Shown piece by piece: positions 2,034-30,484 of a DNA stretch of 64,000 bases. The DNA is taken from NCBI RefSeq assembly GCF_003597675.1, contig NZ_CP030827.1, positions 1,116,001 to 1,180,000 of the forward strand, written 5' to 3'. The notes under the pieces were generated by a model that made no database searches, was not told where the DNA came from, and worked only from the letters and a program-made list of their open reading frames with translations. The DNA is from Neorhizobium sp. NCHU2750 (GTDB lineage: Bacteria; Pseudomonadota; Alphaproteobacteria; Rhizobiales; Rhizobiaceae). The stretch's first letter is position 1, and the number at the start of each line of letters is the position of its first letter. A program made the translations under genes and the position numbers.

Positions 2034-3188
2034 TCAATTGACCTGACCGAAGCGCTCGTGGATCTGGGCAAATTGGGTTGCGACCTCATCGAAGGCCGCG
2101 ACCACGGCCGGGTCGAAATGCTTGCCGCTCTCACCATTGATGAGGTCGACGGCCTCGTTGTGGCTCATCGCCGGCTTGTAGACCCGTTCCGAGACGAGCG
2201 CGTCATAGACGTCGGCGACAGCCATGATCCGGCCGGCAAGCGGAATGTCCTCGCCCTTCAATCCGCGCGGGTAGCCGGTCCCGTCCCATCTTTCGTGATG
2301 GCAATGGGCAATTTCCTTGGCGAGGCTGAGGAACGGATTGCTCTCGCCGATATAGCGCTCCGCCGTGGCGATTGCTGCGCGGCCGAGGTCCGCATGGGTT
2401 TTCATGATGTCGAATTCAGCCCGGTCGAGCCGGCCGGGTTTCTGCAATATGCGGTCGGGAATGCCGACCTTGCCGATATCGTGCAGCGGTGCCGACTTGT
2501 AGAGAAGGTCGACGAACTCGCCGTCCAGCCCTTCCGTCTGCGGTTCGCGGCGGTTCAGGGCCTCGGCCAGAACCTTCACATAATGCTGCGTGCGGCGGAT
2601 ATGGTCGCCGGTCTCGTGGTCGCGGGTCTCGGCCAGCGAGGCCATCGCGAGGATCATCGCGTCGCGGGCGCGGGACGCCTCGTCGCGAGCCTCGGCAAGC
2701 GAATTGGCAAGCGCCACATTGGCAATCGCAAGCGTTGCGGCATTGGCGATCCGCTGGAGGCGGCGGACGCTTTCTTCGGGTGGTGATCCCGGCTTCGACC
2801 AATAGGCTCCGATCGCGCCCAGCGCATCGCCGGGTCGCAGCGGCACGATGACGAGGCTCTTGACGAAGGCGGGGCGCTGGGCAGTCTCGGGCATGCGCGG
2901 GTCGGTATGGATGTCGTCGACGACGACCACTTCCGAATTGCGCATCGCCCAACCCGAGATGCAGGCATCCATGGGAAAACGCTGTCCCTTCCAGAGCGGA
3001 CGGGCGGCATCTTCATCGATATAGAAGCACTCACCGCTTTCCCGCAGCAGGAAGGTCAGGCCATCCGCGCCGATCAACCGGCGCGCAGATTGCCTCAGCA
3101 CGGTCATGATCTCTTCCAGATCGCGGGCCGTGGATATGTTCAGCAGCAGGTCGTCCATGTCATCCATCTGGAAGCGGTGATTTTCCAT
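2034..3188 (-). CDS. GAF/HD-GYP domain c-di-GMP phosphodiesterase
   Basis: The 384-residue protein has an N-terminal GAF-type sensor domain (about residues 15-160), a short helical linker and a complete HD-GYP domain (about 175-370). Catalytic signatures are intact: HDIGK at 236-240, HHERWDGTGYP at 297-307, and a further VADVYDAL helix. HD-GYP proteins hydrolyse cyclic di-GMP to pGpG or GMP, and the GAF domain presumably senses a ligand. No signal peptide or membrane segment is seen, so it should be cytoplasmic. The start ATG follows an AGGTGG ribosome site. It lies antisense between ribE and ribH, so it is not part of the rib operon. Confidence 0.9.
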   Translation of the reverse strand: MENHRFQMDDMDDLLLNISTARDLEEIMTVLRQSARRLIGADGLTFLLRESGECFYIDEDAARPLWKGQRFPMDACISGWAMRNSEVVVVDDIHTDPRMPETAQRPAFVKSLVIVPLRPGDALGAIGAYWSKPGSPPEESVRRLQRIANAATLAIANVALANSLAEARDEASRARDAMILAMASLAETRDHETGDHIRRTQHYVKVLAEALNRREPQTEGLDGEFVDLLYKSAPLHDIGKVGIPDRILQKPGRLDRAEFDIMKTHADLGRAAIATAERYIGESNPFLSLAKEIAHCHHERWDGTGYPRGLKGEDIPLAGRIMAVADVYDALVSERVYKPAMSHNEAVDLINGESGKHFDPAVVAAFDEVATQFAQIHERFGQVN

Positions 3189-3483
3189 TGTCCACCTGCA
3201 TCGGAGCCGAGGATAATAAAGGCCTAATAAAGTGGAAGTGACAAGAATGGTACGCGCTGTTTCTTTAGTTTAACAGATAATTCATCATAAGACATGGCGA
3301 TGATCCAAAACTGCACCGGCGAAGTATTGTCGAGCGACCTTGCGACGCTCCTATTCCTCAGGCGCAGACCTTGTTCCTGCAAAATCGCTTGCCAACCGGC
3401 TCAGGGCGTGTTTTGACCCGCCCATGCAGAATGGCCCGCTTTGTTGGCCTTACGATTGCGCAAGATATTTCCGAAGGTGATCC

Positions 3484-26443: not shown

Positions 26444-27436
26444 TTAACGAGCCGTGGCCTCGCGGGCCAAACGCTCGGCCTTGAGCCCGAGCATATACAT
26501 TGCAACCGTTGCCCCGGCAATGGCGGTAATATCGGCATGATCATAGGCCGGAGCCACTTCCACGACGTCGCCGCCGCGTATGTCGAGTGCACCAAGCTTG
26601 CGCAAGACCGACAGGATTTTGGCGCTGGACGGTCCGCCGGCCACCGGCGTGCCGGTGCCCGGCGCGAAGGCAGGATCGAGGCAGTCGATGTCGAAGGTGA
26701 GATAGACCGGCCGGTCGCCGACATGGGCGAGGATCGCATCGGCTATCTGTTGCGCCCCCATGTCCTCCACCTCATAGCCATGCAGGATGCGGATGCCGAA
26801 ATCGTCCGGCGCATGGGTGCGGATGCCGATCTGGATCGAATGCGCCGCATCGATCACGCCCTCCCGCACCGCGCGGGCGACGAAGGAACCGTGATCGATC
26901 CGTTCACCGCCATCATCCCCATTGCTGTCGTCCCCATTGCTGTCGTCCCATGTGTCCTGATGCGCATCGAAATGGACAAGGGCGAGGGGGCCATGCTTTT
27001 CCGCATGAGCCTTGAGCAGCGGCCATGTAACGAAATGATCTCCACCCAGCGAAAGCAGAAAGGCGCCCGAAGCGATGATCTTCGCCGCTTCTGCCTCGAT
27101 CAGCCCCGGCGTCTTCCGGTGATTGCCATAGTCGAGCAGCACGTCGCCGTAATCCACGACTGCCATCGCCTCGAACAGATCACGCTCAAACGGATATTGC
27201 GGGTCATTGTCGAAGATCGCCGAGGCACGACGGATCGCCTGAGGCCCGAAACGGGCGCCGGGACGGTTGGAAACGGCCGCATCGAACGGGATGCCGAGCA
27301 CCACCGCGTCGGCGCCGTCGATATCCTTGGAATAACGCCGCCGCATGAAGGAGAGGGCGCCTGCATAGGTCGGGTCGGTTGCTGCCCCGCGAAGCGCTCT
27401 TGCGGTAAACGCGTTATCGATCGATTTGCTCGCCAT
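26444..27436 (-). CDS. speB: Agmatinase (ureohydrolase family)
   Basis: Agmatinase hydrolyses agmatine to putrescine and urea. The 330-residue protein has the binuclear manganese ligands of the family: GGDH (His134), DAHQD (Asp157, His159, Asp161) and DIDCLDP (Asp249, Asp251), plus GTGTPVAGG. A 10-residue insert, DSNGD twice, sits at residues 165-174 beside the active site and comes from a 15-bp DNA duplication. ATG 27436 follows AGGAG; the frame is open further upstream but there overlaps the next gene. A related ureohydrolase such as guanidinobutyrase cannot be excluded. Confidence 0.88.
   Translation of the reverse strand: MASKSIDNAFTARALRGAATDPTYAGALSFMRRRYSKDIDGADAVVLGIPFDAAVSNRPGARFGPQAIRRASAIFDNDPQYPFERDLFEAMAVVDYGDVLLDYGNHRKTPGLIEAEAAKIIASGAFLLSLGGDHFVTWPLLKAHAEKHGPLALVHFDAHQDTWDDSNGDDSNGDDGGERIDHGSFVARAVREGVIDAAHSIQIGIRTHAPDDFGIRILHGYEVEDMGAQQIADAILAHVGDRPVYLTFDIDCLDPAFAPGTGTPVAGGPSSAKILSVLRKLGALDIRGGDVVEVAPAYDHADITAIAGATVAMYMLGLKAERLAREATAR
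26916..26945. repeat. 15-bp tandem duplication inside speB
   Basis: The sequence TCCCCATTGCTGTCG occurs twice back to back (26916-26930 and 26931-26945). It encodes two DSNGD units and keeps the reading frame. Confidence 0.9.
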
Positions 27437-27444
27437 TGCCTCTC

Positions 27445-27789
27445 CTACCTGTCGAGCCCGTAGGCCCGCTCCACCCGTGCGATACGCACCTGATAATCCT
27501 CGTACCAGCGTTCCCGCCCAAGCCTCTGCGCGGCGGCATGGGAGACGACGGCCTTCCATGCCCTGATACTGTCCTCGTCCACCCAATAGGAATTGGTAAT
27601 TCCGAACCCGTCAATGCCGCGGGCGCTCTCGACCCCGAGAAATCCGGGTTGTTGGCTGGCAAGCTCGACCATCGCATCGGCCATCTGGCCATAGCCCTGA
27701 TCGCCCTCGGTGCGACAGGAAGAAAAGGCGACGACGTAATAGGGCGGTTGCGGAAGCCGAGCGAAGGGGGATGGCGCAGATGCCGACAT
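27445..27789 (-). CDS. Antibiotic biosynthesis monooxygenase-domain (ABM) protein
   Basis: A 114-residue protein with a ferredoxin-like ABM fold: PYYVVAFSSCRT as first strand, then MVELASQQPGFLGVESARG and ITNSYWVDEDSIRAWKAV. Family members range from heme-degrading to quinone monooxygenases and uncharacterised enzymes. The catalytic residues of a specific subgroup are not recognisable. Start ATG 27789 follows GAGAGGACC; a TTG at 27807 is also in frame. The stop is eight bases from the speB start, so it probably heads the ABM-speB-argC operon. Confidence 0.78.
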   Translation of the reverse strand: MSASAPSPFARLPQPPYYVVAFSSCRTEGDQGYGQMADAMVELASQQPGFLGVESARGIDGFGITNSYWVDEDSIRAWKAVVSHAAAQRLGRERWYEDYQVRIARVERAYGLDR

Positions 27790-28062
27790 GGAAAGGTCCT
27801 CTCTCAAACTGATGCATGAAAGTCATCTGTGGCCATGCACAGTTGATGCGCAAATCTCAAATCGTGATGTATGCGGGAAAGTCCGGTTCAATAATAAACG
27901 CGGAGAGTATTAGGGTATTCGCTTCTCTCGTGATGTGTATGGAAGTCAAGTATATTTTGGTTTTCTAATGGTAAATGCGAAAATTCGATATATTCCATTT
28001 AGGCACATTTAGAGATTCCCGTTGTAAGCATCAGTCATATTTGGTGCGGCGGGATATTATTG

Positions 28063-29298
28063 ATGTTAGGCATATTTAATGCGGCAATGAAATGCTGCAA
28101 AAGACTGGTTAAGGATGGTGGCGGCAACTTCGCCGTTACTACGGCGCTCATCTTGCCCGTTCTCGTTGTTGCCGCAGGAGGTGCGGTCGACGCGTCTTCC
28201 GCCTATCTGGAAAAAAGCAGGATCCAGGGGGCGCTTGATTCAGCCGTGCTTGCCGTGGCCGGGGTGAGCGACAATACGCAACGTTTAACCACTGCTGCGA
28301 GCTTCATGCCGCCGGCATCGGAAAATCCAGTTGCCAATCCGCTCGTTCTCGCCGCCAACAGCGACGGCAGCGTGACGGGAACCTACACGTATGAAGTTGA
28401 GAACAATTTCCTCAATATCATCGGGATCGACAACTTCAGGATTGTCGTGACGGCAACCGCAATGTCGTCCGGGACGAGTGCGAGCAGCGGTTCGGCCTGC
28501 ATCCATGTTTTGGGCAATGTCGGGCAGGCGGTCCTCATCAACTCCGGTGCCAACGTCAAGTCGGCGGCCTGCGGTATCGACGTCCTGTCGACGTCCTCCC
28601 CGGCCTTCATCATGAACAGTGGTTCGACGATCTCGACGCCGCGCTTCTGCGTCAAGGGCACGAATTACATCAAGAACGGTGGCACGCTGACCAATCTTCA
28701 GGTCGGCTGCGCGGCCTCCGCCGATCCCTATGCCGGTCTCCTGCCGGAACCGCCGGTGCCTTCCACCTGCACCATGTCCGGCGCGCAATCGGGCACGACC
28801 TTTACGCTCTCCCCCGGCGTCTATTGCGACGTGACGTTCAACGGCAGTCCCAAACTCACGTTCCAGTCGGGTCTCTACATCATCAAGGGAACGATGATCA
28901 TCAATTCCGGCGCGGTGGTGAATGCCCAAGGCGTGACCTTCTACTATCCGGATGTCAACAGCCGCATCCTCGCCAATGGCGGCCTGACGTTCAACGCGTC
29001 TGCGCCGACCTCCGGCACCTATGCCGGCCTGCTGATGTATGAGGCGACGAGCAGCGCCGCTAACAATGCCAACAAGCAGCAATATATCTTCAACGGCTCT
29101 GTCGGCGAGACGCTGAGCGGCATCATTTACCTGCCCAATCGGCAGGTTACCTACAACTCCACGACAAACCAGACGAGCACGATCAACATGGTCGTCTACT
29201 CCCTGATCATGAATTCGTCGAACTGGGCAGTCGAACCCTATGCCGGCTCGTCTCCCTACACCCAGTCCTCGGTCGCTTCCGTCCGGCTGATGAACTGA
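28063..29298 (+). CDS. TadG-like pilus assembly protein with beta-solenoid-like C-terminus
   Basis: The 411-residue protein starts with a basic segment and one membrane helix: GGNFAVTTALILPVLVVAAGGAVDAS (about residues 21-48). This matches the N-terminal TadE/TadG-like domain. The rest is Ser/Asn/Gly-rich, with repeated N-[SG]-G motifs (INSGA, MNSGS, KNGG, FNGS, INSGA, ANGG, FNGS) spaced as in a stacked beta structure. Four cysteine-containing segments suggest disulfides. It is probably exported. No other tad genes are in the window. ATG 28063 is preferred over the TTG at 28060. Confidence 0.75.
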   Translation: MLGIFNAAMKCCKRLVKDGGGNFAVTTALILPVLVVAAGGAVDASSAYLEKSRIQGALDSAVLAVAGVSDNTQRLTTAASFMPPASENPVANPLVLAANSDGSVTGTYTYEVENNFLNIIGIDNFRIVVTATAMSSGTSASSGSACIHVLGNVGQAVLINSGANVKSAACGIDVLSTSSPAFIMNSGSTISTPRFCVKGTNYIKNGGTLTNLQVGCAASADPYAGLLPEPPVPSTCTMSGAQSGTTFTLSPGVYCDVTFNGSPKLTFQSGLYIIKGTMIINSGAVVNAQGVTFYYPDVNSRILANGGLTFNASAPTSGTYAGLLMYEATSSAANNANKQQYIFNGSVGETLSGIIYLPNRQVTYNSTTNQTSTINMVVYSLIMNSSNWAVEPYAGSSPYTQSSVASVRLMN

Positions 29299-29360: not shown

Positions 29361-29408
29361 CTTGCTCGTAGAAAGCCGAAAAATAGCGCTGGAAAAAGCG
29401 CATAACGA

Positions 29409-29437
29409 AAAAGGCGGAGCCGAAGCCCCGCCTTTCC
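29409..29437 (-). terminator. Rho-independent terminator of the rplM-rpsI operon
   Basis: On the minus strand AAAGGCGGGGC and GCTCCGCCTTT form a stem with a TTCG loop followed by TTCG after a T run. It lies beyond the tandem repeats of the rpsI 3' end. Confidence 0.8.
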
Positions 29438-29460
29438 AAAAGCAGATGTCTGAAAGCGAT

Positions 29461-29568
29461 TAGCGCTTGGAGAACTGGCCGAAGCGCGATTAGCGCTTGG
29501 AGAACTGGCCGAAGCGCGATTAGCGCTTGGAGAACTGGCCGAAGCGCGATTAGCGCTTGGAGAACTGG
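29461..29568 (-). repeat. 30-bp tandem repeat at the rpsI 3' end (3.6 copies)
   Basis: Three perfect 30-bp units (29461-29490, 29491-29520, 29521-29550) are followed by an 18-bp partial unit (29551-29568) that is the coding end of rpsI. On the minus strand each full unit reads SRFGQFSKR plus TAA in the rpsI frame, so the S9 tail and its stop codon are repeated three more times after the real stop. Each unit also carries the inverted arms GCGCTT and AAGCGC. Confidence 0.95.
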
Positions 29569-30017
29569 AAGGAACGGCGAGCCTTGGCCTTACCGTACTT
29601 CTTACGTTCGACAACGCGGCTGTCGCGGGTCAGGAAGCCACCCTTCTTGAGGACCGAGCGAAGGCCCGGCTCGAAATAGGTGAGGGCCTTGGAGACGCCG
29701 TGACGAACGGCACCGGCCTGACCGGAGAGACCGCCACCGGTGACGGTCGCGATGATGTCGAACTGGCCGCCGCGGGCAGCAGCAACGAGCGGCTGCTGCA
29801 GGATCATCTGAAGGACCGGACGTGCGAAATACGCGGTGAAGTCGCGGCCGTTGACGATGATCTTGCCGGAACCAGCCTTGACCCATACGCGGGCAACGGC
29901 GTTCTTGCGCTTGCCGGTCGCATAGGAACGACCCTGTGCATCGACCTTGCGGACGTGAACCGGTGCTGCCTGGCCTTCAGCCGGAGCGAGGTCCTTCAAA
30001 GAGGAAAGATCAGCCAT
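29550..30017 (-). CDS. rpsI: 30S ribosomal protein S9
   Basis: S9 sits in the head of the small subunit, and its basic C-terminal tail reaches the P-site tRNA. The 155-residue protein has the alphaproteobacterial N-terminal extension, then [17 protein letters not shown], the [19 protein letters not shown] motif and the tail RRSFQFSKR. The stop is TAA at 29550-29552. It starts two bases after the rplM stop, a normal rplM-rpsI operon. Downstream, 30-bp repeats re-encode the last residues in frame. Confidence 0.98.
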
Positions 30018-30019
30018 TA

Positions 30020-30484
30020 TCAGGCGCTCCTTACGTTCTTGCTGTTCAGCGAAGCCACGTCGAGGGCGACCGGCTGCTGTGCTTCATGGGGATGGTTGGA
30101 ACCGGCGTAAACGCGCAGGTTCTTCATCTGGCGACGGCCGAGCGGGCCACGGGGAACCATGCGCTCGATGGCCTTTTCGAGAACGCGCTCCGGGAAGCGG
30201 CCTTCGATGATGGCGCGTGCGGTGCGTTCCTTGATGCCACCCGGATAGCCGGTGTGCCAGTAATACTTCTTGTCGGAATACTTCTTGCCGGTGAAGACAA
30301 CCTTTTCCGCATTGATGATGATGACGTTGTCGCCATCGTCAACGTGGGGGGTGTAGGTAGCCTTGTGCTTGCCGCGCAGGCGATTGGCAACGAGGGTGGC
30401 GAGGCGGCCGACAACGAGCCCTTCGGCGTCGATGATCACCCACTTCTTCTCCACCTCTGCAGGCTTCTGAACGAAGGTAGACAT
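30020..30484 (-). CDS. rplM: 50S ribosomal protein L13
   Basis: L13 is an early-assembling 23S rRNA binding protein. The 154-residue product has the family motifs [46 protein letters not shown] and [30 protein letters not shown]. It is the first gene of the rplM-rpsI operon, with a strong promoter about 130 bp upstream. Confidence 0.98.

What the first reader, a model, noticed from the sequence alone, without database searches (positions are those of the whole stretch)
29461..29568. The S9 tail and its stop codon are repeated three times in frame after rpsI
Seen: 30-bp units, three perfect and one partial, run through the rpsI stop. Each full unit reads SRFGQFSKR then TAA in the same frame as rpsI. 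Known: the S9 C-terminal SKR tail contacts P-site tRNA. Inference: the array arose by slippage, but its size in codons and preserved stops could buffer stop-codon readthrough, giving S9 with extra tails, or form a string of small hairpins (GCGCTT/AAGCGC) that protects the mRNA end. It is not a feature I know from rpsI in other genomes.
Basis: partly seen in the sequence, partly recalled or inferred. Interest (0 to 1): 0.7.

Follow-up and report, generated by a model that had tools for sequence, protein, structure and literature searches.

The report
Repeated S9 gene tail after stop
Just past the end of a ribosomal protein gene, its last few codons and stop signal are copied three more times; similar copies turn up in scattered other bacteria and look like a recurring DNA-copying accident at a small hairpin, so this is most likely a mutation hotspot rather than a working device.

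Summary
The array is real. rpsI (29550-30017, minus strand) ends QFSKR-TAA, and three exact in-frame 30-nt units (SRFGQFSKR-TAA) follow; the tail pattern occurs nowhere else in the 6.35-Mb genome. None of 56 congeners has a copy, so it looks recent. It is not unique: a scan of one genome per species found 24 other genomes with a second tail-plus-stop, and later searches added more. In Alphaproteobacteria the linker resembles an inverted, internally shortened copy of the tail: 14 of 16 lineages at p<0.05, combined p 9e-15. The layout is tail, anti-tail, tail, with the stop codon in the loop: the footprint expected of template switching at a quasipalindrome, followed here by slippage. Extra copies decay: 14 nonsynonymous against 3 synonymous codon changes in 22 copies, 6 of them without a stop, and some linkers carry an in-frame TAG. 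Readthrough buffering is therefore not supported. One puzzle remains: 13 of 14 lineages have the copy in frame. I rate it a recurrent, mostly neutral mutational hotspot with an unexplained frame bias.

The parts
29550..30017 (-). rpsI, 30S ribosomal protein S9 (155 aa)
   Evidence: ORF; NCBIfam NF001099 E 7e-58
29550..29567 (-). genuine S9 tail codons QFSKR plus TAA (tail 1)
29538..29549 (-). linker 1 TCGCGCTTCGGC: partial anti-tail (GCGCTT pairs with AAGCGC of the tail)
   Evidence: p 0.015; p 0.049
29542..29558 (-). stop-codon hairpin AAGCGC-TAATC-GCGCTT
   Evidence: fold; scored
29520..29537 (-). tail copy 2 with TAA, in frame
29508..29519 (-). linker 2, identical to linker 1
29490..29507 (-). 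tail copy 3 with TAA, in frame
29478..29489 (-). linker 3, identical to linker 1
29460..29477 (-). tail copy 4 with TAA, in frame; followed by the short native anti-tail CGCTT
29407..29435 (-). native terminator-like hairpin (GGCGGGGCTTCGGCTCCGCC then a T run); its apex GCTTCGGC equals the last 8 nt of the linker
30020..30484 (-). rplM (L13), upstream gene

Best explanation
The array is a mutational product at a hotspot. Shown: the rpsI stop codon in many members of this genus sits in the loop of a small quasipalindrome (such as AAGCG-CTAAT-CGCTT), and the linkers of such arrays resemble inverted copies of the tail. Inferred: during replication the nascent strand folded back at the stop-codon loop, copied an anti-tail from itself (shortened in the middle), then switched back to the template upstream of the stop and copied the tail a second time, giving tail, anti-tail, tail. 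In this genome the 30-nt unit then multiplied to three exact copies by slippage. S9 itself is unchanged, and the copies lie in the 3' untranslated part of the mRNA, where they drift and decay. I see no need for a function. The steps of birth and slippage are inferred from sequence, not observed.
For: Absent in 56 of 56 congeners and in 67 of 67 class members read. Three units identical, hence young. Linker complementary to the tail around the stop: 13 of 16 lineages p<0.05, combined p 1e-16, with G-U pairs allowed; 14 of 16, combined 9e-15, counting strict Watson-Crick with one internal gap. Linkers mostly track the tail's own synonymous Lys codon (AAG with CTT, AAA with TTT; CAAGCGC with GCGCTTG in L033 and L102); exceptions are listed in the full report. 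Several linkers keep both ends of the anti-tail (GCGCT then ACTGG in L129, GCGCTTCG then CTGG in L044). Native stop hairpin stronger than shuffles in 34 of 56 congeners, a plausible seed. Intact, decayed and absent states inside single genera. Drift of copies fits no selection. Template switching at quasipalindromes is established in E. coli (PMC7202029, passages read) and proposed to create RNA hairpins (PMC8794818, abstract and outline read).
Against: The excess of in-frame copies (13 of 14 lineages; 7 of 8 in the family search that did not require an intact second tail) is not predicted. Linker totals of 12 or 15 nt recur although their inner partition differs. The GGGGC part of many linkers is not an exact anti-tail. 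This window's own linker is only just significant (p 0.015 and 0.049), and its last 8 nt equal the terminator apex (p 0.011; one of two p<0.05 among 64 such tests), an alternative source. The anti-tail match is not significant in L042 and L049, nor in L042, L035 and L039, and is absent in the three Lachnospiraceae. Across the class the native stop hairpin is weak (11 of 67).
Confidence: 0.6

Rival explanations
1. Spare tails: ribosomes that read through the first TAA add SRFGQFSKR and stop again, so S9 still ends in the SKR that contacts P-site tRNA (contact recalled, not looked up); selection keeps the copy in frame.
For: 13 of 14 lineages in frame, p 6e-6 if independent; 7 of 8 in the family search that did not require an intact second tail, p 0.003; 7 of 10 with two borderline cases, p 0.02. 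Two copies with an extra base near CAG still keep FSKR-stop in frame (L132, L108). In this genus readthrough would meet no in-frame stop before the poly-T in 48 of 49 ends with a poly-T run.
Against: 14 nonsynonymous against 3 synonymous codon changes (no-selection expectation about 80:20). Stops lost in 6 of 22 copies. In-frame TAG in the linker of 4 of 5 named Brucella loci, L045, L127, L128 and L251, and CAG to TAG in L098. Absent from 56 of 56 congeners. Native ends show no excess of early in-frame stops in the genus.
Confidence: 0.12
2. RNA device: the tandem stop-spanning hairpins in the mRNA are selected, for example to protect the 3' end or tune termination.
For: Stable predicted hairpins with the stop in the loop in many arrays, some tandem (L045, L102); G-U closing pairs (GGGGC with GUUCU); L046 against other Brucella loci shows a matched change.
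Against: A strong terminator-like hairpin already follows here; 67 of 67 class members read lack the array and only 11 of 67 have a significant stop hairpin; arrays decay within genera; template switching alone gives matched arms.
Confidence: 0.15
3. Attachment-site scars: an integrative element or prophage targeting the rpsI 3' end left extra att cores.
For: IMESag-rpsI integrates at the rpsI 3' end (PMC5090054, abstract and passages). 9 of 20 viral contigs with the tail pattern show S9-like codons just upstream. In Blautia L043 an ORF with a weak integrase match (phrog_1, E 7e-6; NCBIfam XerA E 0.001 far below cut-off; no Pfam hit) lies downstream, and L037 and L043 share the same second tail.
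Against: Of 237 Rhizobiaceae genomes, 150 have the exact tail; by the per-genome counts four have two or more (own, G526, G538, G539) and in these the copies are adjacent. An element with an altered tail would be missed. No integrase was seen beside the array here. The linker resembles an anti-tail. No viral contig matches tail plus TCGCG.
Confidence: 0.08
4. Plain slippage duplication of the gene end without inversion.
For: Units are exact and in tandem.
Against: The linker does not match the codons before the tail nor nearby DNA in general (combined p 0.64, 0.59, 1.0, 0.88 for four regions), but does match the tail's reverse complement.
Confidence: 0.05

Closest known systems
Quasipalindrome-associated template-switch mutations in E. 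coli (PMC7202029; passages read)
   Same: An imperfect inverted repeat seeds foldback copying that makes inverted-repeat arms more alike.
   Different: Those reporters score arm correction; here a direct copy of the gene's tail is added after the inverted arm, and the same spot is hit in many lineages.
Template-switch origin of RNA hairpins (PMC8794818; abstract and outline read)
   Same: One event creates a reverse-complement copy able to form a stem.
   Different: Described there for RNA genes; here it sits at a protein-coding stop codon and is followed by tandem expansion.
Integrative elements at the rpsI 3' end, IMESag-rpsI (PMC5090054; abstract and passages read)
   Same: Same gene end as target; that such att sites repeat the gene's end is recalled, not read there.
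   Different: That element is about 9 kb between att sites; here the copies are 30-42 nt apart with no element.
Tandem stop codons in yeasts (PMC1088959; search listing with start of abstract only)
   Same: Extra in-frame stops after the main stop.
   Different: There the extra stops are reported as conserved; here 6 of 22 copies have lost the stop.

Membership tests
Template-switch (quasipalindrome) mutation footprint | Inserted segment is a reverse complement of adjacent sequence | tested here: met
   14 of 16 lineages p<0.05, combined 9e-15; own linker p 0.049, so weak for this window alone
Template-switch (quasipalindrome) mutation footprint | A pre-existing quasipalindrome at the site in relatives without the insertion | tested here: met
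   34 of 56 congeners p<0.05; class sample only 11 of 67
Template-switch (quasipalindrome) mutation footprint | Event seen to arise from a known parent | not testable with these tools
   no sister strains of the species held
Tandem repeat grown by slippage | Near-identical head-to-tail units, copy number variable between relatives | tested here: met
   3 exact extra units here; 1 to 4 extra copies elsewhere; 0 in 56 congeners
Functional readthrough cassette | Peptide after the stop under purifying selection | tested here: not met
   14 nonsynonymous, 3 synonymous (11 and 2 after collapsing repeats within a genome)
Functional readthrough cassette | Open frame from first stop to second tail | tested here: inconclusive
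   open here; TAG in the linker of L040, L041, L053, L055, L045, L127, L128 and L251
Functional readthrough cassette | Frame kept | tested here: met
   13 of 14 lineages, p 6e-6 if independent
Functional readthrough cassette | Readthrough product or footprints | not testable with these tools
   no expression data; one search found no protein with doubled tails but lacked power
Integrative-element att scar at rpsI | Integrase or distant second att copy | tested here: not met
   tail only in the array; the four Rhizobiaceae genomes with two or more exact tails have them adjacent

The most novel reading that the evidence does not exclude
Post-stop S9 tails are born again and again at rpsI and kept in frame because they act as spare tails: a ribosome that misses the first stop still ends S9 in SKR and terminates before running off the mRNA, so the ribosome gains robustness against its own termination errors.
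Probability: 0.1. Interest if true: 0.75.

Novelty: new variant of a known kind. Interest (0 to 1): 0.4.

Why it matters
It marks the end of a universal ribosomal gene as a recurrent site of foldback-copy mutations, with births, expansions and decays visible across Alphaproteobacteria, and so gives a natural series for studying template switching in bacteria. The unexplained in-frame bias gives a concrete, testable question about readthrough of a ribosomal protein gene. It also warns annotators that a repeated gene end with its stop need not be functional.

Tried and rejected
Rejected: chance (exact 18-mers, only in the array in this genome); exact duplication of the last 10 codons (linker does not match); linker taken from the terminator as a general rule (two of 64 tests at p<0.05, this genome at 0.011 and L034 at 0.005, combined not significant); strict peptide selection; mobile-element scar for this genome.

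Led nowhere: a search for natural S9 proteins with two tails (nothing at E<=10, low power); Rfam (only weak hits far below gathering scores, among them SorY, SorX, isrL); plasmid collection (no array reported); next in-frame stop statistics (no clear fail-safe signal); three fetched Lachnospiraceae stretches that I did not go on to analyse.

Limits and dropped rows: lineage counts are mine, by genus and linker, with no tree. combine 16 representatives I chose; four more rows of the same lineages were left out (L033 p 0.002, L085 p 0.069, L108 p 0.049, L050 p 0.033), and the three Lachnospiraceae (p 1) and further members of the same lineages. The array rows used a wrong linker cut and were discarded in favour; its genus and class rows stand. 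The 14 lineages of the frame test come from merging Erythrobacter with Novosphingobium and Afipia with L034; itself prints 15 of 16. Loci L033, L035, L038 and L042 appear to be the same genomes as G769, G539, G538 and G526 and are counted once. Shared ancestry or transfer of 33-nt arrays would weaken the frame test (6 of 7, p 0.007, if all 33-nt cases are one event). The codon-change count (22 copies) left out G464 (out of frame), G609, the third copies of G769 and G204, and the strict-pattern genome-contig loci not also held as G handles, since that pattern favours synonymous change; copies of G204 and G099, found by the strict pattern, were included and show no change; changes shared by related genomes or units are counted each time. 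Of 83 other class genomes with an rpsI match I fetched the 69 best-scoring ends and read 67; two gave no end by my rule and the 14 weakest were not fetched. One search scanned 2024 long ORFs, but its loci were mostly chosen for rpsI, so its 36 rpsI hits of 38 are not a fair rate.

Literature: searches listed no paper that by title or abstract start treats repeated S9 tails after rpsI; most subscription papers are not held.

Full report
What is there. rpsI lies on the minus strand at 29550-30017, downstream of rplM (30020-30484). It ends ...KARRSFQFSKR-TAA. Three exact 30-nt units follow, TCGCGCTTCGGC CAGTTCTCCAAGCGCTAA, each reading SRFGQFSKR-TAA in frame; then the ordinary genus sequence (TCGCTTTCAGAC...) and a terminator-like hairpin at 29407-29435. 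Tails are at 29550-29567, 29520-29537, 29490-29507 and 29460-29477; the degenerate tail pattern occurs nowhere else in the 6.35-Mb genome. One refinement: the unit is not the gene's last 30 nt, because the 12-nt linker differs from the codons before the tail.

Close relatives. All 56 other genomes held for the genus match rpsI. I read all 56 3' ends: none has a second tail within 80 nt at up to 4 mismatches. The array thus looks recent in this lineage.

Elsewhere. A scan of one genome per species for two tail-plus-stop copies 3-33 nt apart, in any frame, found 24 other genomes, all at rpsI: Brucella (5), other Rhizobiales and Hyphomicrobiales (Pseudochrobactrum, Allorhizobium, Afipia, Ahrensia and MAGs), Porphyrobacter, Erythrobacter and Novosphingobium, a Parvularculaceae MAG, Marinicaulis, an unclassified alphaproteobacterium, and three Lachnospiraceae. 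In each the first period is divisible by three: 21, 30, 33 or 42. L046 also has a third copy 29 nt on, out of frame, and one L038 spacing of 90 spans copies with lost stops. Looser patterns not requiring an intact second tail hit none of 384 others in the class and 15 of 393 others in the family. Of these 15, ten are clear rpsI arrays: G794, G764, G464, G538, G161, G526, G666, G539, G577, G769. Two rpsI hits are borderline (G675 period 19, G786 period 25) and three are chance hits outside rpsI (G537, G018, G732). G464 is out of frame (period 32) and has lost the stop. A sample of 67 rpsI ends across the class had none.

Birth and decay. Genera with an array also hold members without it, or with decayed copies. 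In g230, G539 is intact, G666 has CAG turned to TAG, G609 is degraded, and G755, G790 and G717 have none. In g178, G577 has three extra units with lost stops and G769 has one intact unit plus degenerate remains, while G487, G689, G731 and G637 have none. In g49, G204, G099 and G174 have units and G139 none. In g217, one of seven has it (23 of 25 genomes asked for had a match). In g157, G764 and G794 have copies with AGG and TAG, G628 reads QLSKRW, and G466 and G562 have none. Across 22 extra in-frame copies there were 14 nonsynonymous and 3 synonymous codon changes (11 and 2 after collapsing repeats within a genome); 16 of 22 kept a stop and 14 of 22 kept FSKR-stop. Without selection about 80% of changes would be nonsynonymous. 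So neither tail nor stop is preserved as such.

The linker resembles an anti-tail. In folded RNA the tail pairs with the linker across a loop holding the stop codon, for example GUUCUCGAAGCGC / UAAUC / GCGCUUCUGGGGC. Against shuffled linkers, 13 of 16 alphaproteobacterial lineages reach p<0.05, combined p 1e-16, this window 0.015. Strict Watson-Crick matching to the tail's reverse complement with one internal gap gives 14 of 16, combined 9e-15, this window 0.049. The proximal part of the linker may in part be native, since congeners already have a short CGCTT there. AAG tails go mostly with CTT in the linker and AAA tails mostly with TTT; L035 and its relatives, L039, L049, L050, L052, L054, L085 and L129 depart. 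Several linkers keep both ends of the anti-tail and lack its middle. Linkers do not in general come from other nearby DNA. The three Lachnospiraceae arrays have 3-nt linkers and no anti-tail. Native congeners already have a weaker stop hairpin (34 of 56 at p<0.05, related genomes; class 11 of 67, combined p 0.006).

Mechanism. Tail, anti-tail, tail is what a there-and-back template switch would leave: the nascent strand folds at the stop-codon palindrome, copies itself backwards, then returns to the template upstream and copies the tail again. The exact repetition of the 30-nt unit here is then slippage. Template switching at quasipalindromes is well described in E. coli (PMC7202029, passages read), and has been proposed as a source of hairpins (PMC8794818, abstract and outline read). 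That the process acted here is inference from the footprint.

The frame puzzle. Counting lineages by genus and linker, 13 of 14 are in frame (p 6e-6 if independent; one search prints 15 of 16 before two merges). In the family search that did not require an intact second tail it is 7 of 8 (p 0.003), or 7 of 10 with the borderline cases (p 0.02). If all 33-nt arrays were one old event it is 6 of 7 (p 0.007). Linkers of 12 or 15 nt are built differently inside yet share these totals. I cannot explain this by mutation alone. Against a coding reason stand the lost stops and the linker TAG codons in 4 of 5 named Brucella loci, L045, L127, L128 and L251. Readthrough in the genus would meet no in-frame stop before the poly-T in 48 of 49 ends with a poly-T run, so a spare stop could help; I keep this as the minority, most novel reading.

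Mobile elements. The rpsI 3' end is a known integration site (IMESag-rpsI, PMC5090054, abstract and passages read), and 9 of 20 viral contigs with the tail pattern carry S9-like codons just upstream, three of them with a stop codon shortly before. For Lachnospiraceae this fits: L037 and L043 share an identical second tail, and L043 has an ORF with a weak integrase match downstream (no Pfam hit). For Rhizobiaceae it does not: of 237 genomes 150 have the exact tail, and the four with two or more have them adjacent (judged from the per-genome counts, as the list of places was cut). No element was seen beside the array here.

Verdict. A real, young, in-frame array that belongs to a recurrent class of foldback-copy insertions at the rpsI stop codon of Alphaproteobacteria, most likely without function. 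The readthrough reading is not supported by the decay data but not excluded by the frame data.

Noticed in passing
L043, L037, L047 (Lachnospiraceae): Second S9 tail 21 nt after the first, with different codons for the same residues in L037 and L043, which share the same second tail (L047 has Cys for Ser); L043 has an ORF with a weak integrase match (phrog_1, E 7e-6) downstream: perhaps att remains of an element at rpsI.
   Followed up: partly
L229, L230, L232, L234, L235, L241, L244, L245, L247 (viral contigs): Nine of 20 viral contigs with the tail pattern carry S9-like final codons just upstream; in L229, L232 and L235 a stop codon lies shortly before them. rpsI may be a prophage attachment site in several bacterial groups; whether the rest hold a whole rpsI was not checked.
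   Followed up: partly
L248 (G036), about 1252-1602 and 2966-3305: A congener carries a second partial copy of the rpsI 3' half (352 nt, 94% identical) about 1.7 kb downstream in what looks like a segmental duplication.
   Followed up: partly
rpsI 3' ends of the genus: In 48 of 49 ends with a poly-T run there is no in-frame stop between the rpsI stop and the poly-T, so readthrough would give a non-stop mRNA.
   Followed up: partly
window 26916-26949: A 15-nt repeat (2.3 copies) inside a long ORF (26444-27586, minus) giving DDSNGDDSNGDDGG.
   Followed up: no
window 28060-29298 +: Gene convergent with rpsI matches the Tad domain (TadE/G-like, PF13400, E 1e-10).
   Followed up: no
L102 (G577) downstream of rpsI: Three extra 33-nt units whose stops have become Gln or Tyr codons, so the frame stays open past them.
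   Followed up: partly
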